DNA from: Actinospica robiniae DSM 44927
GTDB taxonomy: Bacteria > Actinomycetota > Actinomycetes > Streptomycetales > Catenulisporaceae
Length of the DNA stretch: 64,000 nt
NCBI RefSeq assembly: GCF_000504285.1
Contig: NZ_KI632511.1
Coordinates: 6,864,154-6,928,153 of the forward strand
Direction: 5' to 3'
Positions 48,546 through 61,434 of the stretch are shown in pieces. Below the pieces are notes generated by a model that did no database searches, was not told the origin of the DNA, and saw only the letters and a program-made list of their open reading frames with translations. Positions within the stretch are counted from its first letter, which is position 1, and every line of letters starts with the position of its first letter. A program made the position numbers and the translations under genes.

Positions 48546-48584
48546 TGTTCCGTCCCTGTTCCGTCAGACGACCGACTGTTCCGT
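48546..48584. repeat. Three TGTTCCGT direct repeats beside the integrase gene
   Basis: TGTTCCGT occurs at 48546-48553, 48557-48564 and 48577-48584, spaced 11 and 20 bases. The last copy is inside the end of the integrase gene. Direct repeats at the integrase-proximal end of an element fit arm-type binding sites of a tyrosine recombinase. Confidence 0.5.
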
Positions 48585-49820
48585 GAGGAAGGCGCCTCCC
48601 ATGCGCCGGTCGATCGCCTTGATGGCCCGGTCGTGCGAGCCGGGGAGCATGTGTGCATAGACCCGAAGCGTGAACCCGGGATCCGCGTGGCCGAGGTACT
48701 CGGCCAGCTCCTTAATCGAGACCCCATCAGCAAGCAGCACGCTCGCGTAGTAATGCCGCAGCGCGTGCATCCCGTGCTCCCGGTCCGTCGCGTACTGCAC
48801 GTGCCCGCGCACCCTCTGAGCCGGAGGCTCGGGAATGACGGCCGCCTTCACGAGCGCCGGCTTCCAAACGAAGTCGTTGAACGTGTTGGCCCGAAGCGCC
48901 TTGTCGTCGCTCCACCGGAACAGCAGGTTGTGCGAGCGCGGCTTCCCGTCCAGCTTTTCCCAAGGCAGCGTGTACGGGCTCGGCCGGTAGGCCTTGGCGT
49001 GGCCCCGCAGCACCTTCGCCGCCCACGTAGGCAGCGGCACGACTCGCTCCCGGTCGTTCTTCGGCAGGGCGTACACGAAGCCGCCACGGAGCTTCTTGAC
49101 CTGACGACGAACCCTGAGCACCTGCTCGGAGAAATCGACGTCCTCCAGCGCGAGCCCGAACAGCTCGGTCTGCCGCAGCCCACAGGCCGCCCCGATCGCG
49201 GGTATCGCCCGATACGGATCAGGATGCGCGTCGATCAGCAGCCGTACCTGCTCGTCCGCCCAGGCCTGAACCTCCTTCCCGCCCGTCTTCGGAACCTGCA
49301 CCACACGCGACTTCGCCGGATTCTTCTTGATCGACTCATCCGCGACGGCCAGCTCCAGAACGCCCTGGAGCACGCGGAACGCCGTCGTGATGCTCGAAGG
49401 CGAGAACGACTGAGCCATCTGCCCGATCCACGCCTGGATCAGCGAGGGCGTGATCGCCTTGAGTGCCTTGTTCCCGAACGCGGGCAGCACGTGCAGCCGG
49501 TACGACGACTCGTACCGGATCATCGACGAAGGGTCCACAACCCGCGAATCGAGCCAACGCTGCCCGAGCTCGCTGAACTTCGTCAGCCCGGCTTTCGGAT
49601 CGATGTAGTCGCCGCGAGCCGCATCGACAGACATCGCGTCAGCGTGCTTCTCGGCGTCGACCTTCCTCTCAAAGGCACGCGACCGCTCGCGCCCCTCCGG
49701 ATCGATCCACGAGGCCAGCCAACGCTTGCCCCTGCCGTGTCGATCCGTCTTCTCCCTCTTGGTGTCCCCAGTCTCTGGATCTTTGACGTTCGAGAACCAC
49801 AGATCCTTCACGAAGGCCAT
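48564..49820 (-). CDS. int: Tyrosine-type site-specific integrase
   Basis: A 418-residue phage/ICE integrase. The N-terminal 60 residues form an AP2/arm-binding-like domain, then a SAM-like core-binding domain (about 75-160) and the catalytic domain. Catalytic residues are visible: Arg in GLRQTELFGLAL, His-x-x-Arg in MHALRHYYASVLL, the later His in EYLGHADPGFTLR, and the nucleophile Tyr in VYAHMLPGS. ATG 49820 has AAAGGAGTGG upstream. It marks the left end of an integrated element next to ndk. Whether the element still excises cannot be told. Confidence 0.92.
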   Translation of the reverse strand: MAFVKDLWFSNVKDPETGDTKREKTDRHGRGKRWLASWIDPEGRERSRAFERKVDAEKHADAMSVDAARGDYIDPKAGLTKFSELGQRWLDSRVVDPSSMIRYESSYRLHVLPAFGNKALKAITPSLIQAWIGQMAQSFSPSSITTAFRVLQGVLELAVADESIKKNPAKSRVVQVPKTGGKEVQAWADEQVRLLIDAHPDPYRAIPAIGAACGLRQTELFGLALEDVDFSEQVLRVRRQVKKLRGGFVYALPKNDRERVVPLPTWAAKVLRGHAKAYRPSPYTLPWEKLDGKPRSHNLLFRWSDDKALRANTFNDFVWKPALVKAAVIPEPPAQRVRGHVQYATDREHGMHALRHYYASVLLADGVSIKELAEYLGHADPGFTLRVYAHMLPGSHDRAIKAIDRRMGGAFLTEQSVV

Positions 49821-49842
49821 CAATCCACTCCTTTCTCTCGCA

Positions 49843-50878: not shown

Positions 50879-51172
50879 GTGGGCGAGAGCATCGAAATGC
50901 TCGACCACACGACCATGGCTCGCGCCCTCATCGAGGGCGCGGCCACCTGCCTCAGCCAGACCATCACCAAGTACATCCACTACGAGAACGCGTGGTGGGG
51001 CATGGCCCCCTTCGGCTGGGTGAAGCTGACCGACAGCCAGGTCTCTGACGGCCTCGATTCCTTCGCCGCCAAACTCGCCGCCGCCGACGCAGCCGTACGC
51101 GCCTCGGTGGAGCGCTCGAAGCCGGTCCAGGCAGCATTCCAGACGGCTGCTCAGACGGCAGGGGAGAGGTGA
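50879..51172 (+). CDS. Hypothetical protein of the integrated element
   Basis: A 97-residue protein, mostly helical and without recognisable domain (MARALIEGAATCLSQTITKY; FAAKLAAADAAVRASVERSK). GTG 50879 has GGAGGGAGAG upstream. It overlaps the next gene by four bases (GTGA), so it belongs to the same operon. Function unknown. Confidence 0.65.
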   Translation: MGESIEMLDHTTMARALIEGAATCLSQTITKYIHYENAWWGMAPFGWVKLTDSQVSDGLDSFAAKLAAADAAVRASVERSKPVQAAFQTAAQTAGER

Positions 51173-52185
51173 GACGGCCCATGACCACCGAAGCCCTCGA
51201 GTCTCTGGCAGAACGCGCCGAGCAAGCCGTCCTGGGCGCCCTCCTCCTACGCCCCGACGTCTTCCAGGACATTGCCTACCTGGACCCCGCCCAGTTCGCG
51301 GACCCCGCCCGCGCCGCCCTCTTCGGCGCCATCCGCACCGAGCTGTCCCGCGACCCCGACCAGTCCGGCAGCACCCTGAGCGCCCACCTCGACAACGTCT
51401 ACTCCGCCACTGGCGCCAGCCCCGACTACGAGGCCCTCGCCAACGCCTGCCCTCACCCCGAGTCGGTCGCTGCCTACGCCCGCATGCTCGTCGAGTCGGA
51501 TCTCCACCGCACCATGCAACTCCACGCCGCCCGCCTCCGAGACTCCTCTGAGCCCAACACCCAACTCCACGCCGAGGCCGAAGTCCTAGACCGCGCCAGC
51601 GTCACAATCTCTGACGAAGCCGAGCAAGCCCCCATCCCCGGAGGCTGGAAGGGCAGCCGCCCCAACCGCGAAGAGCGCGTCCTCGCCGACCTGATCCAGC
51701 ACCCAAACGAGCTCGACCAGCTGCCGCCTTGGCTCAGCCCCGACAACTTCTCATCGCTCGCCCGCAGCGACGCCTTCGACGCCCTCCAGGAACTCCACCG
51801 CCGCGCCGAGCCCGTCGACCGTCTGACCCTCGCCTGGGAACTCGACCGCATCCAGCACGCCGGCACCATCGGCGCCCCCAGCTCCAGCCCCGGCGTAGAC
51901 GCCCTCGCCTACATCGACCGGCTCGCCGCCATCCCCGTAACCCCCGGCACCGCATCCGAAGTCCTCCCCAGCCTCGCCAACCCCACCCCGCAGACCACCA
52001 CCCACCCCAACGCACCACGAACACCGCGCCCGGGCCCCACCTACAGCCAGCGGGCTCAGGCATACGCCGTCGAACGCCAACTCGGCCGCGACCGCATCCC
52101 CGAGCCCGAACCTGACTACCCCCGCCCGTCCTACGACCCGCCACGCGGCCCCGAGCGCGGCCACGGCCCCCGCATGGGCTCCTGA
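51169..52185 (+). CDS. Protein with two DnaB N-terminal domains but no helicase core
   Basis: A 338-residue protein. Residues 12-125 (AEQAVLGALLLRPDVFQDIA) and about 165-255 (REERVLADLIQHPNELDQLP, DAFDALQELHRRAEPVDRLT) both look like the DnaB N-terminal domain that binds primase and forms the helicase collar. The RecA-like ATPase is absent. The last 80 residues are Pro-rich and disordered (NPTPQTTTHPNAPRTPRPGP). It may load or block the host replicative helicase or primase for element replication; that is inference. GTG 51169 has GGGGAGAG upstream; ATG 51181 is an alternative. Confidence 0.7.
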   Translation: MRRPMTTEALESLAERAEQAVLGALLLRPDVFQDIAYLDPAQFADPARAALFGAIRTELSRDPDQSGSTLSAHLDNVYSATGASPDYEALANACPHPESVAAYARMLVESDLHRTMQLHAARLRDSSEPNTQLHAEAEVLDRASVTISDEAEQAPIPGGWKGSRPNREERVLADLIQHPNELDQLPPWLSPDNFSSLARSDAFDALQELHRRAEPVDRLTLAWELDRIQHAGTIGAPSSSPGVDALAYIDRLAAIPVTPGTASEVLPSLANPTPQTTTHPNAPRTPRPGPTYSQRAQAYAVERQLGRDRIPEPEPDYPRPSYDPPRGPERGHGPRMGS

Positions 52186-52258: not shown

Positions 52259-53704
52259 ATGGCGAGCCGCGACGAGCGGAAGACCCCTGCCCAGATGTAC
52301 CGCGAGTTCGCCAAGCAGCAGCAAGCCGAGAAGCGGCAGCAGGCGGCAGCAGCGAAGAAGGCGGCGGACGCCGAGGCCAAGCGTCAGCGCGACGAACAGA
52401 AGCGCCTCGAAGCCGAACAGCGCCGCGCAGAACGCGCCGAGGCAAACCGCGAGGCGAAGGAGCGCGCCGAGAACGCACGCGCCGTTGCGGCGGTGCTCCG
52501 AGGCATCGACAGCCGCGAGGCCCAGAGCGAGCGCACGGCGAAGGCCCAAGCCGCGGCCTATGAGCGCAAGCGCAAGGCCGACGAGATCCAGGCACTGCGC
52601 GACGAGGCCGACCGAAAGACGGATGAGGTCACCGAGTTGGTCGAGTACATCGACCACATCCTGGCTGGCCGAGACCGCGACCTGGCGGATCTGCGCACAT
52701 CGACAGACGTCGACCCGCAGGCCGACGACGGCCAGCTCTTCGCGGACGCCGTCTGCAGCGTGTTGAACGGTCTCAACTATCTTCAGGGCCGCGACGTCGT
52801 GACCGGCACGTACGAGCCCGAAGCTCGCAGACTGGTGCTCCAGGTCGATCTACCCCGTAAAACGAACATCCCCGTCGCGCGGGAGTACAAGTACGTCGCC
52901 TCGAAGAAGTTGATCGAACCGATCGCCCGCAAAGACGCCGAGGTGCAAGTGCTCTACCGCAAGCTCGTGGCCGGGATAGCCCTGAGCGCCCTCGACTACA
53001 CGATGCAGATCACGTCCCCTGAACTCGTCGTCGAAGTGGTCCTAAACGGCCACTCACGAGGAACCGACCCAGCCACCGGCCAGAAGATCAACCCCTGCCT
53101 CGTCACGGTTCAAGCCGAACGCGAGCAGTTCGGGACGCTGGTCCTCGACTCCCCGGAACTCGATGCCGTCCAGTGCCTCCACCACCTAAAGGCCCTCATC
53201 ACCGAGAACCCCTACGACCTGATCCCGGTGACGCCGATCATCGACCTTGAGTTCCTCAAGAAGTACAAGCTCGCCGGCGAGGTTGCAGCGCTGGCCGCCC
53301 TCGATCACCGCACCGACCTGATGAAGATCTCGCCGTACGAGTTCGAAAAGCTCATCCAGCAGCTCGCAGAGGCCATGGGCATGAAGTCCTGGCGCACCCA
53401 GAACTCACAGGACGACGGCATCGACGCCATCGCCTACCGCGAAGAGCCCTTCAACACCGGCGTCTGCGTCATCCAAGCGAAGCGCTACAGCAAGACCGTC
53501 CCCGTCGAAGCCGTCCGCGCCCTCTACGGCAGCATGGCCCAGAAGAAGGCCGCCACCGGCATCGTCGTGACCACCTCCAAGTTCGGCAAGGCCAGCTACG
53601 ACTACGCCAGAGAGATGGGCCGCATCACCCTGTACGACGGTACCCACCTGAAGGCGCTCCTCCTCGAACACATGGGTCTCGATGTATTGATCGGTCGGAG
53701 CTGA
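52259..53704 (+). CDS. Mrr-type restriction endonuclease with coiled-coil N-terminus
   Basis: A 481-residue protein. Residues 1-140 are highly charged and coiled-coil-like (EKRQQAAAAKKAADAEAKRQ). A middle domain (150-340) is unrecognised. The C-terminal Mrr_cat nuclease domain (about 360-470; ISPYEFEKLIQQLAEAMGMK) has the PD-(D/E)xK core as Asp389 in DGIDAI and Gln406-Ala-Lys408 in VIQAKRY. Such enzymes cut foreign or modified DNA. ATG 52259 with CGGAGGCC upstream. Defence of the element or its host against phage is inferred from the family and place. Confidence 0.82.
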   Translation: MASRDERKTPAQMYREFAKQQQAEKRQQAAAAKKAADAEAKRQRDEQKRLEAEQRRAERAEANREAKERAENARAVAAVLRGIDSREAQSERTAKAQAAAYERKRKADEIQALRDEADRKTDEVTELVEYIDHILAGRDRDLADLRTSTDVDPQADDGQLFADAVCSVLNGLNYLQGRDVVTGTYEPEARRLVLQVDLPRKTNIPVAREYKYVASKKLIEPIARKDAEVQVLYRKLVAGIALSALDYTMQITSPELVVEVVLNGHSRGTDPATGQKINPCLVTVQAEREQFGTLVLDSPELDAVQCLHHLKALITENPYDLIPVTPIIDLEFLKKYKLAGEVAALAALDHRTDLMKISPYEFEKLIQQLAEAMGMKSWRTQNSQDDGIDAIAYREEPFNTGVCVIQAKRYSKTVPVEAVRALYGSMAQKKAATGIVVTTSKFGKASYDYAREMGRITLYDGTHLKALLLEHMGLDVLIGRS

Positions 53705-53948
53705 TGCACGGTACTGCTACGTGTAGGAGAAGGAGGGAAGGCTGCGTTGTGTCGTCAAGTGGGCGCAGAGCTCGGACTCCGGGCACGATCTCGGGGTTCC
53801 TGCAGAGTATGGATCATGGGGCCTCCCAGTAAATCTGGTAAAGCGTGCCCATAGCTATTGCCGAAATGGTAGCATTTGAGAAGTGACTTGAGGCGGTTAG
53901 GGCAGAATCGGCCGCAGGAAGAACCTTCGCGTAATGTGAGCGAGATGG
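53705..53948. other. Intergenic region with a drop in GC content
   Basis: No gene is supported. From about 53800 the sequence becomes visibly richer in A and T than its surroundings (for example CCAGTAAATCTGGTAAAGCG), and this continues to about 55130. It marks the border of a separately acquired segment. CCAGTAAATCTGG at 53827-53839 is a small perfect inverted repeat (CCAG-TAAAT-CTGG), perhaps an operator. Confidence 0.45.
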
Positions 53949-55010
53949 GTGTCAATGTCCATTAATGTCGTGCCGCGGAAATACCTTTGGGGAAGGGCTG
54001 GGAACCGTTGCGCTTACACTGGCTGCTCCCAGAAGCTGATCGATACACCTGGTATGGATGCCTTGGAAATCGCTCAGAGCGCAGGAATCATCTTGGGCGA
54101 GGAAGCTCACATTCGATCTAGTAAGGCTGATGGTCCAAGGCACGATGAGAGCTATCCGGTAGATATGCTCGACAGTTACGAAAATCTTATCTTGCTATGT
54201 CCGACGCACCATACAAAGATCGATAAAGACGGCGGATCCGATTTTCCGGTAGAGATGCTCGTTGCCATGAAGGCAACGCACGAGGAGGCTGTTGATTCTA
54301 CTCTTGGAGAAGCTGGGAAGAAGCGCCGCGAATTGTGTGAACGAACCGCAGTATCGGTGGCGATCTGGGAGAAAAAGCTTGGGCTCGACGATTGGCATGA
54401 GCTCAGCTACAGTCTAAATACGCCACGGCCGACGATTGCTCGGGATAGGTTTGAGCAGCTGCAGCGGCTTTGTGAGTGGCTGTTGGCGAAAAGGTGGGAC
54501 AAGGGATTTCCAGCCCTGGTTATAGCCTTTGAGAACCACCGGCTTGCCATGGCTGATCTATCGTCTATGCTTAGCGGTTCAATGAAATCGTGGGGCGAAG
54601 ACTCTCTGATGATGCACCGAGAGACGGTCAACCTAGAGTGGGACGAGGACAAATACGAGAGATTGTCTCGTGTCGAAGATGTGCGAGCTGCCATCATCTT
54701 CTCTCTCGTAGTAGAAGCCACCAGGTCCGTCAATTTTGTCATTGACGCTATCATTGAAGATTTGGACCCGTATTATCGATTTGACGAGGGTTTGTGCCTC
54801 ATGTTTCGTGGGGACGGATTCACTTTCGAGAAGTACCGGCTCGGCTATTCTTCGCATAGGCTGGAGCGCGGCCTGCTCTATCCAGGGATGCCCTATATCG
54901 AGAGTGTTGTCGATGAGTTGGTCGAGAATAAGAATCACGACTATGGAGTGCTGCTAAACCTCTGCGCGGACATCGATAATATCGGCGACTTTCGGTCTAG
55001 TCGATCATAA
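53949..55010 (+). CDS. HNH-endonuclease-domain protein with unknown C-terminal domain
   Basis: A 353-residue protein. The N-terminal 100 residues are an HNH nuclease with zinc-type cysteines: CAYTGC (Cys21, Cys26), EEAHIRS (His54) and ENLILLCPTHHTKID (Asn79, Cys84, His87, His88). Residues 110-353 have no recognised domain; they are mixed helical (RFEQLQRLCEWLLAKRWDKG, IIFSLVVEATRSVNFVIDAI). The base composition is far more AT-rich than its neighbours and uses codons rare here, a sign of recent transfer. It stands next to the Mrr-type gene, so a defence role is possible. GTG 53949 or ATG 53955 is the start. Confidence 0.75.
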   Translation: MSMSINVVPRKYLWGRAGNRCAYTGCSQKLIDTPGMDALEIAQSAGIILGEEAHIRSSKADGPRHDESYPVDMLDSYENLILLCPTHHTKIDKDGGSDFPVEMLVAMKATHEEAVDSTLGEAGKKRRELCERTAVSVAIWEKKLGLDDWHELSYSLNTPRPTIARDRFEQLQRLCEWLLAKRWDKGFPALVIAFENHRLAMADLSSMLSGSMKSWGEDSLMMHRETVNLEWDEDKYERLSRVEDVRAAIIFSLVVEATRSVNFVIDAIIEDLDPYYRFDEGLCLMFRGDGFTFEKYRLGYSSHRLERGLLYPGMPYIESVVDELVENKNHDYGVLLNLCADIDNIGDFRSSRS

Positions 55011-55095
55011 AATTGGCGTGTAGTGGATTGGAGCGCGCGAATGCTATGCGCCTTCACTTTTCGGTGCACGCTTCTCGAAGTTGTTCTTGTAGAAA

Positions 55096-56193
55096 TTAGA
55101 TTGCGCCGGATAATGCATTCTTGCTCAGATCAATGGAAGTGAATAGAACGTCAGACAGCGGTCCTGAACCTAGCCCCGAAGAAGCCGCAACCTTGAGCAA
55201 TTCTTGCTGCCGCATGCTGTCCAGGCAAAGCGGTGCGCTCTTGTAGGTGGCGACCTCGCGCGCAGCATACCCGTCACCCAAGAGCAGCACTTTTTCGGCG
55301 GAGTACATGAGGAGCCGATTTGCTGCTTCGGGGGAGAAGCCTCTTGCGAGGGTAGCGACACTGACGCCCAATCGAGCAAAATACGGCATACGGCCGGAAA
55401 CCGGTGGAAGGGCATAGAAGCTGGCGATCATCGCTGTCATTTTCGCGGTGAAGTCTTTCCCTGCTGTGTACGTGCACATGACGTCGAGGCAGGTTGCGAC
55501 CTGCCGTTCCCATGGCTCGGTGAGGGTGCTGGCCGCGAAGAGTTCGGCCGCGTCGCCCCCGTGGCCGTTCAAGCAGGCCGCGACGATCGCGGCCTGGCGT
55601 CCCTCCATGAGGTGCAGTCCAATGCCGCGGTGCCGCTCGGCGTGCTGGACTGCCTCGTCCCAACGAGCCTGTAATGCCAGCGCTCGAACTCCGTCTGAGA
55701 TGCAGGACTTCCACGCCCACTCATAGAGCTTCCGGTGCTCCTCCCTTGTGCCGACCATCCCGGCGATGGGAAGCACGCGGCCATCGACTTCCAGATCGGA
55801 GCGCTCCTTGATGGCTCGGAGCATGTTCTCCAGCAGGTCGACAGCGTCGTTGCCGCCGCCGGAGCGGATGCTGAGTCGGGCGAGGTTGAGTACGGGTGCG
55901 AGCATGTATCCGACGTTGGTCACGCTGAGGGTCGGGCCGGTGTCGCGGAAGATGTTGATTTGCTGCCAGCACAGGTCGCGGGCAAGGGGAGCGTCGCCGC
56001 TGTCGCTGGCGATCAGCGCGGCTTTGTTCAGGACGTAGGTTGCGTTCGTGAGTACGTCGGCGTCGCCAGCGCGGATGCTTTGAGCAACCTGGGCGATCTC
56101 GTCGACTCGCTCGGTCAGGCTGGGGCATGCCGGCCGTGGGCGGCTAAGAAGGGGGAAGCGCCGCGAAGCTGCGACGAGGGTTGATTCGTCCAT
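55096..56193 (-). CDS. Unrecognised helical (TPR-like) protein of the lanthipeptide operon
   Basis: A 365-residue, all-helical protein with Ala-rich helix pairs reminiscent of TPR repeats (ARDLCWQQINIFRDTGPTLS, ALQARWDEAVQHAERHRGIG, AAIVAACLNGHGGDAAELFA). It looks like the repeat half of the XRE-TPR regulators of streptomycetes without their DNA-binding domain. ATG 56193 has GGAGCTGAAC upstream, two bases after the preceding stop, so it is the last gene of the lan operon. No catalytic motif is visible. It could be a scaffold, a partner for export or immunity, or a sensor; none of this is shown. The long frame opening upstream at 56988 is a shadow of the preceding gene. Confidence 0.7.
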   Translation of the reverse strand: MDESTLVAASRRFPLLSRPRPACPSLTERVDEIAQVAQSIRAGDADVLTNATYVLNKAALIASDSGDAPLARDLCWQQINIFRDTGPTLSVTNVGYMLAPVLNLARLSIRSGGGNDAVDLLENMLRAIKERSDLEVDGRVLPIAGMVGTREEHRKLYEWAWKSCISDGVRALALQARWDEAVQHAERHRGIGLHLMEGRQAAIVAACLNGHGGDAAELFAASTLTEPWERQVATCLDVMCTYTAGKDFTAKMTAMIASFYALPPVSGRMPYFARLGVSVATLARGFSPEAANRLLMYSAEKVLLLGDGYAAREVATYKSAPLCLDSMRQQELLKVAASSGLGSGPLSDVLFTSIDLSKNALSGAI

Positions 56194-56195
56194 GT

Positions 56196-57176
56196 TCAGC
56201 TCCGAGGGAGGGTGGCGAGTGTCGCGGCTCGGGCGAGGATGCGCTGCTGAGTCGCCGACAGACCGAGGCGGTTCCAGTGGAAGATCACTATGTGGGTGAG
56301 GATCGCTCGCAATCCGCGTTCCAGGGTGCCGCTGGCCGCGGCCTCGCCGAATGTCCTGCCGGCCGCTTCGAATGCGTAGAGCCAGGGCCGGGCCTGGTGG
56401 GCGGGGCCGCCCGGGGCGAAGAGAGCTGAGTCTGCGGAGACCGGAACGCGTAGGAGTCTGCCCACGTCTGCGGCCAGCTTCTCGATTTTGGGTGCTGCTT
56501 CGGCGGTGAGGCGAGGGCGGAGCCTGGTCACGCGGTCGAACACGTCGCCGCACTCGAAGGAGTCGAGCCCCGCAACTCGCATCATCGCGGCGCACAGCAG
56601 CATCGACATCTCGCGAGGGCCCAGACCGGGTGCGGGGTGACTGACGTACTCCAAGACGCCGCGGCTGTCGGCGAAGAAGAGACTGTGGGCCGCGTTGACT
56701 CCGACGTCGCCGCCGAACGCGGCTACTTCCGGCTCGTAGATCGTTGGCTGCCAGGGCTGGATGTGGCCCGCAGCGGCCAGTTCGTCCAGTACGGGAGCGA
56801 CGGATTGGGCGGGCGTGCACGGGCCGATTCCCAGCACTCGGATACGCCAGCAGGGGTACTTCCGGAGGAACCACCAGCCGGTGATCGCTCCGGTCTGCTC
56901 CAGCCGATCGAGCTGGGGGAGTAGCACGCCCGCGCCGATCTTCTCGGCCGCATTCCAGTCCACGAACTGGATGCGAACCTGGAACCACTCGCGTTCTGCA
57001 CGCTGCTCAAGTGCGGCGACTCCGGCGGCCTGGTAGACGCAGACAGCCTCGTCGAGCTCTTCGGGAGTCATGTTGAACTGGGCTGCGATCTGTGCGAAGT
57101 CGCCACCGGCGAGGACCGAGAGCACGCCGTCCGCGAGGCAGGCGGTAGGCGCGGTGGTTAGTTGATCAGTAGGCAT
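56196..57176 (-). CDS. Stand-alone LanB elimination-like domain (thiopeptide-type, SpaB C-terminal)
   Basis: A 326-residue protein. After a 60-residue helical N-terminus (LADGVLSVLAGGDFAQIAAQ), residues 65-325 show the thiopeptide-type/SpaB C-terminal fold: WFQVRIQFVDWNAAEKIGAG, GWWFLRKYPCWRIRVLGIG, and a conserved helical end (GLRAILTHIVIFHWNRLGLS). In split dehydratases this domain removes glutamate from glutamylated Ser/Thr. Here it is an extra, because the LanB next door seems to have its own copy. ATG 57176 overlaps the lanC end by 19 bases. It may serve the same substrate or have turned into another tailoring step. Confidence 0.8.
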   Translation of the reverse strand: MPTDQLTTAPTACLADGVLSVLAGGDFAQIAAQFNMTPEELDEAVCVYQAAGVAALEQRAEREWFQVRIQFVDWNAAEKIGAGVLLPQLDRLEQTGAITGWWFLRKYPCWRIRVLGIGPCTPAQSVAPVLDELAAAGHIQPWQPTIYEPEVAAFGGDVGVNAAHSLFFADSRGVLEYVSHPAPGLGPREMSMLLCAAMMRVAGLDSFECGDVFDRVTRLRPRLTAEAAPKIEKLAADVGRLLRVPVSADSALFAPGGPAHQARPWLYAFEAAGRTFGEAAASGTLERGLRAILTHIVIFHWNRLGLSATQQRILARAATLATLPRS

Positions 57177-58330
57177 GCGTCCCATCCCGATAGCGGAGGA
57201 GCATCCCGACGAAGGGTTTCGAGGGCGAGTTCGACGCCGGCAGCGCCGGTGAGGAAGCCCGGCCGGGCGGCGGCTTCAGCGCTCTGGCGCTTCACTAGTA
57301 GGGCGACGTCGGGCAGCCGGCCAGCGAGGTGGGGCGTCTTCGCGTCTCGCGATGCGCGCCACGCGGTCTGGAAGATGCCGGCCGCGCCATGGCAGATCCC
57401 TGCATCCTTGATCTGCCGGAAGTTGGTCTCAGTGAGGTTCGCCGCGAAGTCCTGTTCGGCGCGTGCCTGGCGTACGTCGTCTCCGAGTGCGAGCGCGGCC
57501 AACTGCTGTGCACGGGTGATGCCGGGCGCCCCGTAGCACCACGAGATTCGCCCTGGCGACCTCTGGCTGGGCTCGCCCGACCGCAAGTCCTCGCGTGTGA
57601 GCCACTGCGGCCACCAGGGCCCGTCCGGCCCTTCTTGACGCCACTGATCGAAGAAGTCGAGTATCGACTCGATCGCTTCGCGCTGGCCGGGTACCTCGAT
57701 ACCGCGCGAGGCCGAGATCGCGAGGACGGCGAGGAGGCCGGCGGCCCCATGTGCCATCCCGAGATTCGCGTGGCCGCCAGGAGTGGGCACGATCCGGTCC
57801 GGGTCGTGCTCAACCCACCATCCGGAGACGGCCAGGCCGTCGACGTGGCGCGGCGTAGTCAGACCGACGAGGTAGTTGAGAGCGTCGGGAAGGACTGCGG
57901 CTTCCGGCAGGTGGCGCACCATCAGTGAGGTGAGCCCGACCAGTCCATAGAGGAGGTCGTACTCCTTGAAGGTCAGCGGTAGGCCTTCGGTACGAGCTCT
58001 GATTGCCGCACCGACTCGGAGCTCCACGACAGCGATGGTGTGCTGGTCTGCGACTTTCGCGGCGGTACGGTAGCGGGCGCCTCGGTCCGAAGTTGCCGCG
58101 TGCAGCAGGAAGCAGATCGAGGGGACGCCGTAGTAGAGGCCGGTGTGTCCTGCCGCGGTGATGGGCGACGCCGTCGCCGCGCGGATCTGCGCGGCTGCCG
58201 GTTTCCAAGCACCGCTGCCGGTCAGAGCGCGTTCCACGTCGAGCAACGCGGTGCCGGCTGCGCCGGAAGCAAGCGACTGGGCGCGGGCTTGCTCGATGTC
58301 GTCGCTGGTCTCGGTCGGGTCGATCGTCAT
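57158..58330 (-). CDS. lanC: LanC-like lanthionine cyclase
   Basis: A 390-residue cyclase that joins Cys thiols to dehydrated residues to make (methyl)lanthionine rings. The zinc ligands are all present: Cys265 in SWCYGAPG and Cys313-His314 in ICHGAAGIF. The GG-rich helical barrel repeats (GHANLGMAHGAAGLLAVLAI, GFLTGAAGVELAL) fit the family. ATG 58330 overlaps the lanB stop by four bases (ATGA). Length is usual for actinobacterial class I LanC. Confidence 0.92.
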   Translation of the reverse strand: MTIDPTETSDDIEQARAQSLASGAAGTALLDVERALTGSGAWKPAAAQIRAATASPITAAGHTGLYYGVPSICFLLHAATSDRGARYRTAAKVADQHTIAVVELRVGAAIRARTEGLPLTFKEYDLLYGLVGLTSLMVRHLPEAAVLPDALNYLVGLTTPRHVDGLAVSGWWVEHDPDRIVPTPGGHANLGMAHGAAGLLAVLAISASRGIEVPGQREAIESILDFFDQWRQEGPDGPWWPQWLTREDLRSGEPSQRSPGRISWCYGAPGITRAQQLAALALGDDVRQARAEQDFAANLTETNFRQIKDAGICHGAAGIFQTAWRASRDAKTPHLAGRLPDVALLVKRQSAEAAARPGFLTGAAGVELALETLRRDAPPLSGWDACLLIN

Positions 58331-61300
58331 CGGCTGCCCACCTCTGACAGCGCTATGCGACGCAGCGCGCAGGAGCGAGCGAGGCGATTTGTGAGGGCTT
58401 CGAACTTGGGATCGACCCCGAGCGCTCGAACGTGGTGGTCGTGCAGCAGCGTGCGAAGCACACCCGATGGGTCGCGCTGAGCGGCCAACGCCGTGTAGTA
58501 GGACTTCAGGGCCTCGTCACGCGCGTCCCACGCCCGCACGACAGCCTCGCCCCCACGCAGCTTCGATATCTCCGCATATCGGCGGGTCGGTTCCGCAAGC
58601 CTGACGGCGACCTCGCGGAGGGCACGGTCCATGGGCCCGGTCTCCTGCTTCAACACCTGCGCGAGCAGTCGGCATCCGGTCTCGGCGTCCGGCGCGAATG
58701 CCGCGGCTATGACGGTCATCGACACGGCGGCAAGGGCTTGTGCCGGGATCGCTGCTTGGGCTGCGGCGTTGATCTGCGCGACGGCCGCCGCGGTGTCGGC
58801 GGCGAAGACGAGCTTTGCGCTGGCGAGCGCCTCTCCTTCGCCGTATCGGCCGGGCTGTTCCTGGTACGAGGCGATGGCCACTCGCGATATGAGCCCGCGG
58901 GCCTGTAGACCGCTTGCGACGTTCGCGACCTGGCGCGCGACATTCCCGTACGCGTCCGAGTCGGCCAGCCGGAGGAAGAGTGAGACGTACTGGTCGGTGT
59001 CCAGCCGAATCAGATCGCGGAATCTCCGAACCCACCAGCGAACAACCCGGTCGCCGCCGAGCCCTTCGACAGCGGCCGGCAGATGCCTGCCCAGGATCTC
59101 GTCGAAGCGTGCCGGATTCCCGATCAGCTGGACGTGGAGCACGTCACCGTAGCCAGCGTTCTGAGCAGGGCTTGGTCTGGTGGTGACGGCGGGCAGCTGC
59201 CTCGTAGACGACGAAGCCTTCAAGACGAGCGGGACGAGCAGTTGCGAGGGCACGCCGAGCCAATCGTGCGCGTCCGGGTCGCCCGCCTCCCGCAGCTCAA
59301 CTCGTTCGGTGCGTCTGAGCTGGAGGCGCAGGAGCGCCCGATCCAGCACGTGGTCCAGGTCGAGAGGCAGTCGCAGTTCCCCTTGGCAGAGGACGACGCG
59401 AGCTGGAACGCGCCACTCCCCAGCCCAGTCCTTCAACCGCCGCTCCCACTCGCCGGCGGCTACATCGTCTCCGAGGTCCGAGGCCTTGAGCAGCCACCGC
59501 GCGGGCGCGAGGACCGTTCGCCGGTACCGGATACGCGGCGTATAGGGCAGCGTCCGGGCGGCGCCGAAGTTGAAAGGTGAGAACACGGCGCTGCGCGCGT
59601 CAGCGACTTCGGACAAGAAGCGAGCGAGCAACGGCGTGTGGATTGTGGCTTCGAGAGCGTGCAGCGTGCGGGGGACGACGCGCTTGCCGGTCGGCAGGTG
59701 CACGAGGTAGAGCTGCTCGTCGTCGGCGGTGACGCCAAGGTCGTCCACGGAGACTCCCGGTCGGCCGTCAGCGCTGAACTCGGAAATCCGGATCACGTCC
59801 GGAAGCAGCTCCGGCGTGCGCACGATGTTCTCGTTGTGGAGGCGTCGGGGCGGGAACGACAGCTGCATTGCCGCTGTGTTCGGAGCCTCATCACGGAATG
59901 ACGCGGCCAGTCGTGCTGTGTCTGCTGAGTCGAAGAGGTAGGCGAAGCGGCCAGCCATGCTGCTGCCCGACCTGGGTACGGCATCGATCCACAGTTCGAA
60001 TCGGCCACGGTCGATGTCATCGAGGCTGTGCGCGTGGAGGTCGAAGGCGAGCTCGACCCGCTGCGGCGGGACCGGAGTGCCTCGCTCTCCGGCCGTCAAC
60101 GCCCGGATCAGTGGTTCTGTTAGCTCGATCTCCTGCGATCGTTCCCAATTCGCGCGCTGAAGGGCCGCCAGCATGGTCACATCGCGCTCATTGACCGTTC
60201 GCCACGTGGGGCGGGCCTGTGGGGCGCCGAGATAGCCGGCTGGGTAGCCGAGCCCTGAATCGGCGACCAGTTCGCGGACCGGGACGAGCGCGCCTGGACC
60301 ATAGCGAGCCCGGAAACGCTGGTGGTAGTTGATCCAGGCCGACGTGCCGAACGGCTTCGTGCTCAATCTGACCAGGACGTCCGCAGCGGCAGCGGCCTCG
60401 CGCAGAACCGCGTCCGGAACAGTGATCTTCGCATCGAGTCGAACATCGACGGCCAGCGGATAGCCGTGAGTGTCGTGCCGCGGTGCCGCCGCGCGCATCA
60501 TCGCGACGATCCTTCTGCGCGTACTCGTTCCCACCGGAGTCAGGGATGTGCACGACGCAGACCGAAGGCTGGCGGCGATCTCGTCGAGTCGGTCTACCGT
60601 GACCTTCAGATCCGGCAGTTCGTGAGCTGCCGCGGCTCTCAAGGCGTCCAGGACATGGGCGAATGCGTCAACAGCTGTCATCGGAGCGCGGAGGCTCGTA
60701 GTGACGATCTGGTGGTCAATCAGGTTGTGGAGCAACTGCTCGATCTTCTCAACGGCTACGGCCGGGAACTGCGCTGCCAGTCGCGGCACGAGTTCGTCGA
60801 AGCGGATCGGCTGAGCGCACAGGTTCAGGGCCGCCTGCACGGGCCGGGTGTTGGCCACCGAAAGCTCGAGGAGCGGCCCGGGAAACTCACCGGGTCGAGG
60901 ACGGCCTGCGACGATCACCCGGTCGTCCCGGACGACGCGTCCGCTGTCGGCGGCGACCAGAAGCCTGCGACGTAACTGCGGGTGACCTTCGAGCTCATCG
61001 ACCAGCACGCCAAGCCATTCGGCGTCCGCTCGGAGATGGACACGATGATCCGTGCCGATCTGGCCATCTGCGCGTGTTCCGGCGGCGGCACTGGCTACGC
61101 CCGCGAACAGCCCGAATGGGGTCGTACGGCGCTGCCACCTGGCCACGTAGGAGATTGCCGAGAGGACCGTACGACGCAGGTCACGGACGACCAAGCGGGC
61201 CGGATCTTCGGAGAGGACCGTGTCGATCTGCGTGGCGAGAGCAGGACTAGCGACGCTCAGGGCTTCTCGAAACCGGTCCTCCGCCCACACACGTGCCAGC

Positions 61301-61434
61301 CAGACGCGGCCTTCGCTCCGCATTGCGGAGTCGTCGGCGGGGTCGAAGCTCAGCGGAAGGTCCAGGCCCGCCGTATAGGTCGTAGCGCGAACGAGTACGA
61401 CGCCAGCGTGTTCGTATCGAGATGAGACAGCCAC
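58327..61434 (-). CDS. lanB: Class I lanthipeptide dehydratase LanB, full length
   Basis: A 1035-residue dehydratase. The N-terminal glutamylation domain (about 1-700) includes ARWQRRTTPFGLFAGVA (RTTPFGLF at 103-110), the conserved entrance of tRNA-Glu-dependent LanBs, and SPFNFGAARTLPYTPRIRY. The C-terminal elimination domain (about 755-1020) reads VLHVQLIGNPARFDEILGRH, VRWWVRRFRDLIRLDTDQY and [20 protein letters not shown]. It should glutamylate Ser/Thr of the precursor with Glu-tRNA and eliminate to Dha/Dhb. It starts 84 bases downstream of the precursor gene with GGAGGTTGGAAC upstream, and is coupled to lanC. Confidence 0.93.
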   Translation of the reverse strand: MAVSSRYEHAGVVLVRATTYTAGLDLPLSFDPADDSAMRSEGRVWLARVWAEDRFREALSVASPALATQIDTVLSEDPARLVVRDLRRTVLSAISYVARWQRRTTPFGLFAGVASAAAGTRADGQIGTDHRVHLRADAEWLGVLVDELEGHPQLRRRLLVAADSGRVVRDDRVIVAGRPRPGEFPGPLLELSVANTRPVQAALNLCAQPIRFDELVPRLAAQFPAVAVEKIEQLLHNLIDHQIVTTSLRAPMTAVDAFAHVLDALRAAAAHELPDLKVTVDRLDEIAASLRSASCTSLTPVGTSTRRRIVAMMRAAAPRHDTHGYPLAVDVRLDAKITVPDAVLREAAAAADVLVRLSTKPFGTSAWINYHQRFRARYGPGALVPVRELVADSGLGYPAGYLGAPQARPTWRTVNERDVTMLAALQRANWERSQEIELTEPLIRALTAGERGTPVPPQRVELAFDLHAHSLDDIDRGRFELWIDAVPRSGSSMAGRFAYLFDSADTARLAASFRDEAPNTAAMQLSFPPRRLHNENIVRTPELLPDVIRISEFSADGRPGVSVDDLGVTADDEQLYLVHLPTGKRVVPRTLHALEATIHTPLLARFLSEVADARSAVFSPFNFGAARTLPYTPRIRYRRTVLAPARWLLKASDLGDDVAAGEWERRLKDWAGEWRVPARVVLCQGELRLPLDLDHVLDRALLRLQLRRTERVELREAGDPDAHDWLGVPSQLLVPLVLKASSSTRQLPAVTTRPSPAQNAGYGDVLHVQLIGNPARFDEILGRHLPAAVEGLGGDRVVRWWVRRFRDLIRLDTDQYVSLFLRLADSDAYGNVARQVANVASGLQARGLISRVAIASYQEQPGRYGEGEALASAKLVFAADTAAAVAQINAAAQAAIPAQALAAVSMTVIAAAFAPDAETGCRLLAQVLKQETGPMDRALREVAVRLAEPTRRYAEISKLRGGEAVVRAWDARDEALKSYYTALAAQRDPSGVLRTLLHDHHVRALGVDPKFEALTNRLARSCALRRIALSEVGSR

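What the first reader, a model, noticed from the sequence alone, without database searches (positions are those of the whole stretch)
53800..55130. AT-rich HNH protein with an unknown 240-residue partner domain: candidate defence gene
This segment has clearly lower GC than everything around it, and the protein fuses a complete-looking HNH nuclease to a domain I cannot place. It directly follows an Mrr-type nuclease in an integrated element, between the element and the lanthipeptide operon. Single-gene HNH fusions with unknown sensor domains are a common form of newly found anti-phage systems.
Basis: partly seen in the sequence, partly recalled or inferred. Interest (0 to 1): 0.6.

Follow-up and report, generated by a model that had tools for sequence, protein, structure and literature searches.

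The report
Single-gene HNH nuclease with unknown sensor
This gene makes a DNA-cutting enzyme of a kind bacteria use against viruses, joined to a second part that matched no protein family or solved structure searched here; relatives occur in many unrelated bacteria, several of them beside known virus-defence genes, so it is probably an unnamed one-gene immune system.

Summary
A 351-353 aa ORF (53949/53955-55010, +) has GC 0.514 against 0.697 for the rest of the window. Residues about 3-120 are an HNH nuclease of the Cap5 (CBASS effector) type; residues about 121-353 have no significant match in Pfam, PADLOC, NCBIfam, PHROGs or PDB sequences. The architecture is conserved: 58 of 105 examined proteins carry this C-terminal domain, spread over 12 phylum-level groups. 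H54, N79 and H88 are invariant in 50 of 50 aligned members. The C-terminal domain is modelled confidently as helical (pLDDT 91.5), with no convincing PDB match. No neighbour family recurs in more than 6 of 56 loci. Individual neighbours include Gabija, type IIG R-M, DRT and OLD-like genes. Seven E. coli copies opened, nearly identical, lie between tail-sheath and tail-fibre-assembly genes of P2-like prophages, as I recall the fun(Z) site. It fails as a CBASS effector: no SAVED domain found, and 21 of 26 relatives' genomes lack SMODS. Best reading: a single-gene anti-phage nuclease with its own sensor. Trigger and activity are untested.

The parts
53955..55010 (+). HNH + C-terminal-domain gene (351 aa from ATG 53955; 353 aa from GTG 53949), stop included
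53955..54308 (+). Cap5-type HNH nuclease domain and start of the long connecting helix (residues 3-120, counted from GTG 53949)
54108..54110 (+). codon of H54, aligned to His56 of Pseudomonas syringae Cap5 (a His56Ala mutant is PDB 9nlg, by its title)
54183..54185 (+). codon of N79 of the HNH motif, invariant 50 of 50
54210..54212 (+). codon of H88 of the HNH motif, invariant 50 of 50
54309..55007 (+). C-terminal helical domain (residues 121-353), no known family found; proposed sensor
53750..55400 (.). low-GC segment (about 0.50-0.55 in 500-base windows, flanks about 0.62-0.72)
52259..53704 (+). upstream Mrr-type (type IV) restriction endonuclease; a neighbour, with no relative among the 834 neighbour ORFs of the other loci
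48564..49823 (-). tyrosine integrase beside ndk; presumed integrase of the element

Best explanation
A single-gene anti-phage system. Shown: a Cap5-type HNH domain with its conserved residues is joined to a conserved helical domain, in a gene without a recurrent partner, often GC-poorer than its surroundings and in several cases beside defence genes. Inferred: the HNH domain is a metal-dependent DNase held inactive at rest; the C-terminal domain senses a phage component or an infection-induced change in the cell, and rearranges or oligomerises so as to switch paired HNH domains on. Phage DNA, and probably host DNA too, is then cut, ending the infection either by clearing it or by killing the cell first. 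What the domain senses is not known.
For: The HNH domain matches the CBASS Cap5 effector by sequence (PADLOC effector 4.3e-27; PDB 7rwk 8.2e-09) and by fold (8fmf_A Z 14.4, 107 residues, rmsd 3.4; 7rwk_A Z 14.2, 106 residues, rmsd 2.6). H54 aligns with His56 of P. syringae Cap5. H54, N79, H88, C84, D92 are invariant in 50 of 50. The same HNH module occurs with other C-terminal parts: 47 of 105 proteins did not match this domain, and all 10 of those 47 that I scanned hit the Cap5-type models over the HNH part, as expected of a swappable effector. No neighbour family recurs in more than 6 of 56 loci, which suggests that the gene acts alone. Context: Gabija GajA and GajB just upstream in L010; type IIG R-M in L047, DRT in L032 and L034, OLD/GajA-like in L043, TIR in L081, a weaker ATPase match in L038 (4 of its 10 picked proteins had no match); Mrr here. 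E. coli copies in one P2-like prophage site; PMC9519451 (passages) reports a second defence-enriched locus of P2-like phages that holds fun; that this is the same site is recalled. Mobile signature: lower GC than its flanks in 47 of 49 loci. Helical domain confidently modelled.
Against: No activity or phage test exists. How many neighbourhoods hold a defence gene is unknown: near and far PADLOC tallies (145 against 76 families, 140 proteins each) count families, not proteins, and show no significance; the distant control proteins also match defence models (methyltransferases, DrmD, AriA, mad genes). The E. coli copies are near-identical (five of the seven opened share one protein accession), so they are one or few events. 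Loci were chosen by an HNH pattern, which biases what was seen. Partner genes too divergent for blastp, or short ORFs under 70 aa, would have been missed. Solitary HNH genes can also be restriction enzymes or homing genes.
Confidence: 0.58

Rival explanations
1. A modification-dependent (type IV) restriction enzyme: the C-terminal domain reads a modified base or backbone directly on phage DNA and the HNH domain cuts nearby. This is also defence, but by direct target reading rather than by sensing infection.
For: Single polypeptide with no recurrent methyltransferase partner; the HNH fold is shared with the type IV enzymes EcoKMcrA (6ghc, Z 6.9) and ScoMcrA (5zmm, Z 6.7); the window neighbour is an Mrr type IV enzyme. 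HNH type IV enzymes of 224-283 aa (wH-HNH) and 375-496 aa (PUA-wH-HNH) exist (PMC11037411, passages).
Against: Cap5 is a far better match for the HNH part (Z 14.4). No known reader family was found in 50 C-terminal domains and no PDB fold match. The domain is mainly long helices, unlike the readers that I recall.
Confidence: 0.23
2. A CBASS-like effector activated by a cyclic nucleotide made elsewhere in the cell.
For: Cap5-type HNH; one SMODS hit exists in the own genome and in 5 of 26 relatives' genomes.
Against: The own hit is 1.18 Mb away. 21 of 26 relatives' genomes have none (26 of the 42 genome loci with the domain were tested, some genomes incomplete). No SAVED domain was found by Pfam. 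SMODS covers only part of the CD-NTase families, so this is strong but not complete.
Confidence: 0.07
3. A homing or otherwise selfish HNH endonuclease gene.
For: Mobile-looking, solitary, low GC.
Against: The HNH is of the defence-effector type; no homing-type DNA-binding domain was reported by Pfam; the E. coli copies lie between phage genes rather than inside a conserved gene.
Confidence: 0.05
4. A toxin or DNA-metabolism gene without a role against phages, for example one that stabilises the mobile element that carries it.
For: Carried by plasmids and prophages; no defence phenotype is known.
Against: No antitoxin-like partner recurs; it is also found beside chromosomal defence genes.
Confidence: 0.07

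Closest known systems
CBASS effector Cap5 (HNH-SAVED; PDB 7rwk, 7rwm, 8fm1, 8fmf)
   Same: HNH domain by sequence and fold, and the catalytic histidine
   Different: no SAVED domain found, C-terminal domain mainly helical; no CD-NTase seen nearby
PDB 9om4 'HNH endonuclease' (435 aa)
   Same: closest HNH domain in the PDB sequences (9.3e-17; 5.1e-44 with the family profile)
   Different: the match ends at its residue 114; its remaining 320 residues gave no match to the profile. No paper held names the entry
PADLOC candidate PDC-M68A
   Same: HNH domain (1.6e-27)
   Different: only profile positions 10-114 of 253 match
HNH plus NACHT-like proteins (for example L011, 1156 aa)
   Same: same HNH module at the N terminus (52.7% identity over residues 5-112; L060 hits the same PADLOC models)
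   Different: a much longer C-terminal part with a weak NACHT match in L011 (E 0.002, under the cut-off)
wH-HNH and McrA-type type IV restriction enzymes
   Same: one polypeptide with an HNH nuclease and further domains
   Different: no reader domain recognised here; weaker HNH fold match than Cap5
P2-EC46 Z-region ORF2 (AJ512680)
   Same: HNH-like, and deposited as part of a P2 proviral Z-region
   Different: the tblastn match covers only the HNH part, 31% of the query L061

Membership tests
CBASS Cap5 effector | Cap5-type HNH nuclease domain | tested here: met
CBASS Cap5 effector | SAVED sensor domain | tested here: not met
   No SAVED match by Pfam in the protein (E up to 1) or in any of 50 C-terminal domains (E up to 0.01); PADLOC SAVED_HNH models match over the HNH part only; the domain is mainly helical
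CBASS Cap5 effector | adjacent CD-NTase | tested here: not met
   the only SMODS hit of the genome is 1.18 Mb away; 21 of 26 relatives' genomes have none; a home-made motif scan of neighbours printed nothing. Other CD-NTase families were not searched
Type IV (modification-dependent) restriction enzyme | nuclease without a cognate methyltransferase | tested here: met
   no recurrent neighbour among 56 loci; one locus, L047, does have a type IIG enzyme beside it
Type IV (modification-dependent) restriction enzyme | recognisable modified-DNA reader domain | tested here: inconclusive
   no Pfam reader in 50 members; no PDB fold match, which does not exclude one
Type IV (modification-dependent) restriction enzyme | cleaves modified DNA only | not testable with these tools
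   needs biochemistry
PADLOC PDC-M68 | full-length match to PDC-M68A | tested here: not met
   profile positions 10-114 of 253; the partner gene of PDC-M68 was not looked for
Anti-phage defence gene (general) | recurrent location in defence sites | tested here: inconclusive
   For: defence neighbours in L010, L032, L034, L043, L047, L081 and the window, and the P2-like prophage site in the 7 opened of 9 near-identical E. coli copies. But no formal enrichment and no count per locus
Anti-phage defence gene (general) | protects against phage | not testable with these tools
   needs a phage challenge
Homing endonuclease | homing-type DNA-binding domain (NUMOD, AP2, LAGLIDADG; names recalled) | tested here: not met
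   Pfam scans report none

The most novel reading that the evidence does not exclude
A so far unnamed single-gene immune system, rare where I counted it but spread over 12 phylum-level groups: a Cap5-type HNH effector switched directly, without a second messenger, by a new helical sensor domain for which no relative was found in the PDB.
Probability: 0.48. Interest if true: 0.66.

Novelty: new variant of a known kind. Interest (0 to 1): 0.52.

Why it matters
If true, the Cap5 nuclease can be controlled without any cyclic-nucleotide signal, by a sensor in the same protein whose fold has no relative found here. A gene of about 1 kb that works alone could be tested directly in laboratory E. coli, and escape phages would name the trigger. 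It would also give detection tools a profile for a family that the PADLOC version searched here does not describe beyond its HNH part.

Tried and rejected
CBASS membership: rejected (no SAVED found, no CD-NTase nearby). Conserved partner gene: sought by all-against-all blastp (E 1e-6) of 834 neighbour ORFs in 56 loci; the largest cluster covered 6 loci and looks, by its letters, like common ABC-type proteins. Coupling to the Mrr gene: not supported; the window's Mrr protein finds no relative among those 834 ORFs. Fold of the C-terminal domain: whole-model and domain-only searches gave no convincing match for it; the best VIA-align row for the domain alone was Z 6.5 (6s7o_E, rmsd 4.0, 119 residues), within the range the tool calls possibly chance for helical bundles. 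Weak hits told: among 50 domains, PbeC in 1 (7.7e-4), CAS_C in 2, Aca2_YdiL in 1, VID27_PH in 1 (0.005-0.008); none recurs. Att site: short or imperfect pairs only. Empty site: conservation with three relatives stops at or near the end of ndk and different sequence follows in each, so no clean empty site. Domain-only prevalence: 4 of 197 genomes, own included; 2 of 392 in the genus of G111, both already seen; 1 of 396 in the phylum with the profile, the window itself; 5 plasmid records, one the query's own; no phage record. Two further viral scans gave 5 loci (four of them the contigs already fetched as L017-L019 and L022, one already L015) and 1 locus already held; a third gave none. The first genome-contig scan, with the single protein, found no relatives. 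Promoter and terminator scan: near the shuffled expectation.

Papers: searches listed none that I recognised as describing this fusion; several listings were cut (for example 15 of 35, 8 of 11). I saw passages of PMC9122126 (with its outline; its P2 hotspot lies between other genes, Q and A), PMC10952713, PMC9519451, PMC8568899, PMC7159879, PMC13092281 and PMC11037411; of the rest, listings only. Supplements could not be opened, so a tested candidate hidden in a table is not excluded.

Rows dropped before counts: L002 and L076 (duplicates) from the 58 members before the neighbour analysis of 56 loci; L014, L019 (short) and L076 before the 50-row alignment, which also left out six members not fetched by the search for related loci; L009, L015 and five other loci under 8 kb before the GC count of 49; L009, L015 and L027 from the near/far sets, which were cut to the nearest 140 of 266 and a random 140 of 189 proteins, none over 1000 aa. 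The ten proteins were picked by size or motif, and those by eye, so their hits are not a rate. One search took 10 of 47. Odds changed at this check: best explanation 0.60 to 0.58 and novel case 0.50 to 0.48, because the E. coli copies are near-identical and the statement that most neighbourhoods lack defence genes could not be borne out either way.

Full report
WHAT IS THERE. The ORF at 53949-55010 (+) is real. The next in-frame ATG, 53955, aligns with a methionine in 39 of 50 family rows. Residue numbers below count from GTG 53949. GC is 0.514; equal-length stretches elsewhere in the window average 0.697 (sd 0.032) and none clear of the gene falls below 0.598. The gene lies 250 bases after an Mrr-type enzyme, in a region with a tyrosine integrase and a repressor-like gene, and before lanthipeptide genes.

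THE NUCLEASE HALF. Residues about 3-120 match HNH_2 in Pfam, PDC-M68A (1.6e-27) and Cap5-type CBASS effectors (4.3e-27) in PADLOC and, in the PDB, 9om4 'HNH endonuclease' (9.3e-17) and Cap5 structures (8.2e-09 and weaker). In the predicted structure (mean pLDDT 91.6, pTM 0.89) model residues 1-118 align with Cap5 (8fmf_A Z 14.4, rmsd 3.4, 107 residues; 7rwk_A Z 14.2, rmsd 2.6, 106 residues), above McrA-type and Cas9 HNH domains. H54 aligns with His56 of P. syringae Cap5, the residue changed in PDB 9nlg (title). H54, N79, H88, C84 and D92 are identical in all 50 aligned family members. Cap5 degrades DNA when 3',2'-cGAMP binds its SAVED domain, and the published structures are dimers packed through the HNH domains (PMC8568899, passages).

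THE OTHER HALF. Residues about 121-353 have no significant match in Pfam, PADLOC, NCBIfam, PHROGs or PDB sequences. Scans of 50 members of the domain found only isolated weak hits, and the family profile found no PDB sequence below E 0.24. Predicted alone, the domain is a confident, mainly helical bundle (pLDDT 91.5). Foldseek found nothing below E 4 and VIA-align nothing above Z 6.5, which for helical bundles may be chance. A new fold is possible, not proven; predicted structures of cellular proteins could not be searched.

A CONSERVED FAMILY. A domain-only search hit 4 of 197 related genomes, own included. Plasmid relatives covering 85-90% of the protein were found in Pseudoalteromonas, Shewanella and Rhizobium. 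Scans with the 8-row alignment gave 18 viral-contig loci and the best 80 of 244 genome loci. Of 105 proteins examined, 58 carry the domain: 42 from genome contigs, 10 from viral contigs and 6 from earlier searches. A tree of 42 members covers 12 phylum-level groups; Actinomycetota, Pseudomonadota and Cyanobacteriota do not each form a single clade, which fits transfer but does not prove it. The window protein groups with three Streptomyces relatives (support 99/94). In a six-frame scan of the loci, domain matches outside the 58 were only other fetches of the same genes, and the 5 plasmid records of the domain-only search are the same as those with a full-length match. So I have not seen the domain without the HNH part, but most of these loci were found through the HNH part.

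CONTEXT. No neighbour family recurs in more than 6 of 56 loci, and the window's Mrr has no relative among them, so the gene seems to act alone. The gene is GC-poorer than its flanks in 47 of 49 loci, by 5 points or more in 34. Nine of 5426 E. coli genomes hold a copy, over 99% identical to the query. The seven that I opened lie between the tail-sheath and tail-fibre-assembly genes of a prophage that I read as P2-like, on the opposite strand; five of the seven share one protein accession, so these are one or few insertion events. That this is the P2 fun(Z) site is recalled, helped by a deposited 'Z-region' record with an HNH ORF. [quoted passage not shown] the passage does not name the flanking genes. 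Individually scanned neighbours include Gabija GajA and GajB directly upstream in Rhizobium, a type IIG enzyme 48 bases upstream in L047, DRT reverse transcriptases near L032 and L034, an OLD/GajA-like ATPase near L043, a weaker ATPase match near L038 and a TIR protein near L081 (distances); 4 of the 10 picked proteins, and 7 of the 10, had no match. Bulk PADLOC tallies were 145 families near and 76 far, for 140 proteins each; they give no count per protein, so I claim no enrichment.

WHAT IT IS NOT. Not a CBASS effector as defined: no SAVED domain found, 21 of 26 relatives' genomes have no SMODS protein, and the own genome's only one is 1.18 Mb away. A type IV restriction enzyme is not excluded and is the main rival.

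HOW IT PROBABLY WORKS. By analogy with Cap5 (inferred): HNH domains pair, the helical domain keeps them inactive, a phage trigger changes the helical domain, and DNA is cut. The trigger and the outcome (clearing or cell death) are unknown.

NOVELTY. The principle, an HNH effector with an exchangeable second domain, is known from Cap5; this second domain and this family are not described in the libraries and papers that I could search (list under Tried and rejected). I rate it a new variant of a known kind.

Noticed in passing
window 56196-61434 (-): Class I lanthipeptide biosynthesis genes: a Lant_dehydr_C protein (1.8e-23), and long ORFs that I read as LanC- and LanB-like from the translation only.
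   Followed up: no
window 51169-52185 (+): A 338-aa protein with two matched stretches of the DnaB N-terminal domain and no helicase domain reported.
   Followed up: no
L011 3874-9471; also L060, L062, L065, L071, L072, L073: Proteins of about 1100-1170 aa with the same HNH module; in L011 a weak NACHT match, about 500 bases after a SIR2 protein matching PDC-S25.
   Followed up: partly
L019 7971-8729 (and L137): A truncated 252-aa copy of the E. coli-type gene in a prophage contig, the domain split over two frames.
   Followed up: no
window about 48494 onward: Conservation with relatives ends at or near the ndk stop codon and different sequence follows ndk in G001, G002 and G004, so this may be a site of frequent insertion.
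   Followed up: partly
L111 488-1594: Phage P2-EC46 Z-region ORF2, deposited as a putative lysogenic conversion protein, has an HNH part like this one.
   Followed up: partly
L084, L099, L100, L103, L104 and others: Short proteins of about 220-250 aa with the same HNH module and other, unexamined C-terminal parts.
   Followed up: no
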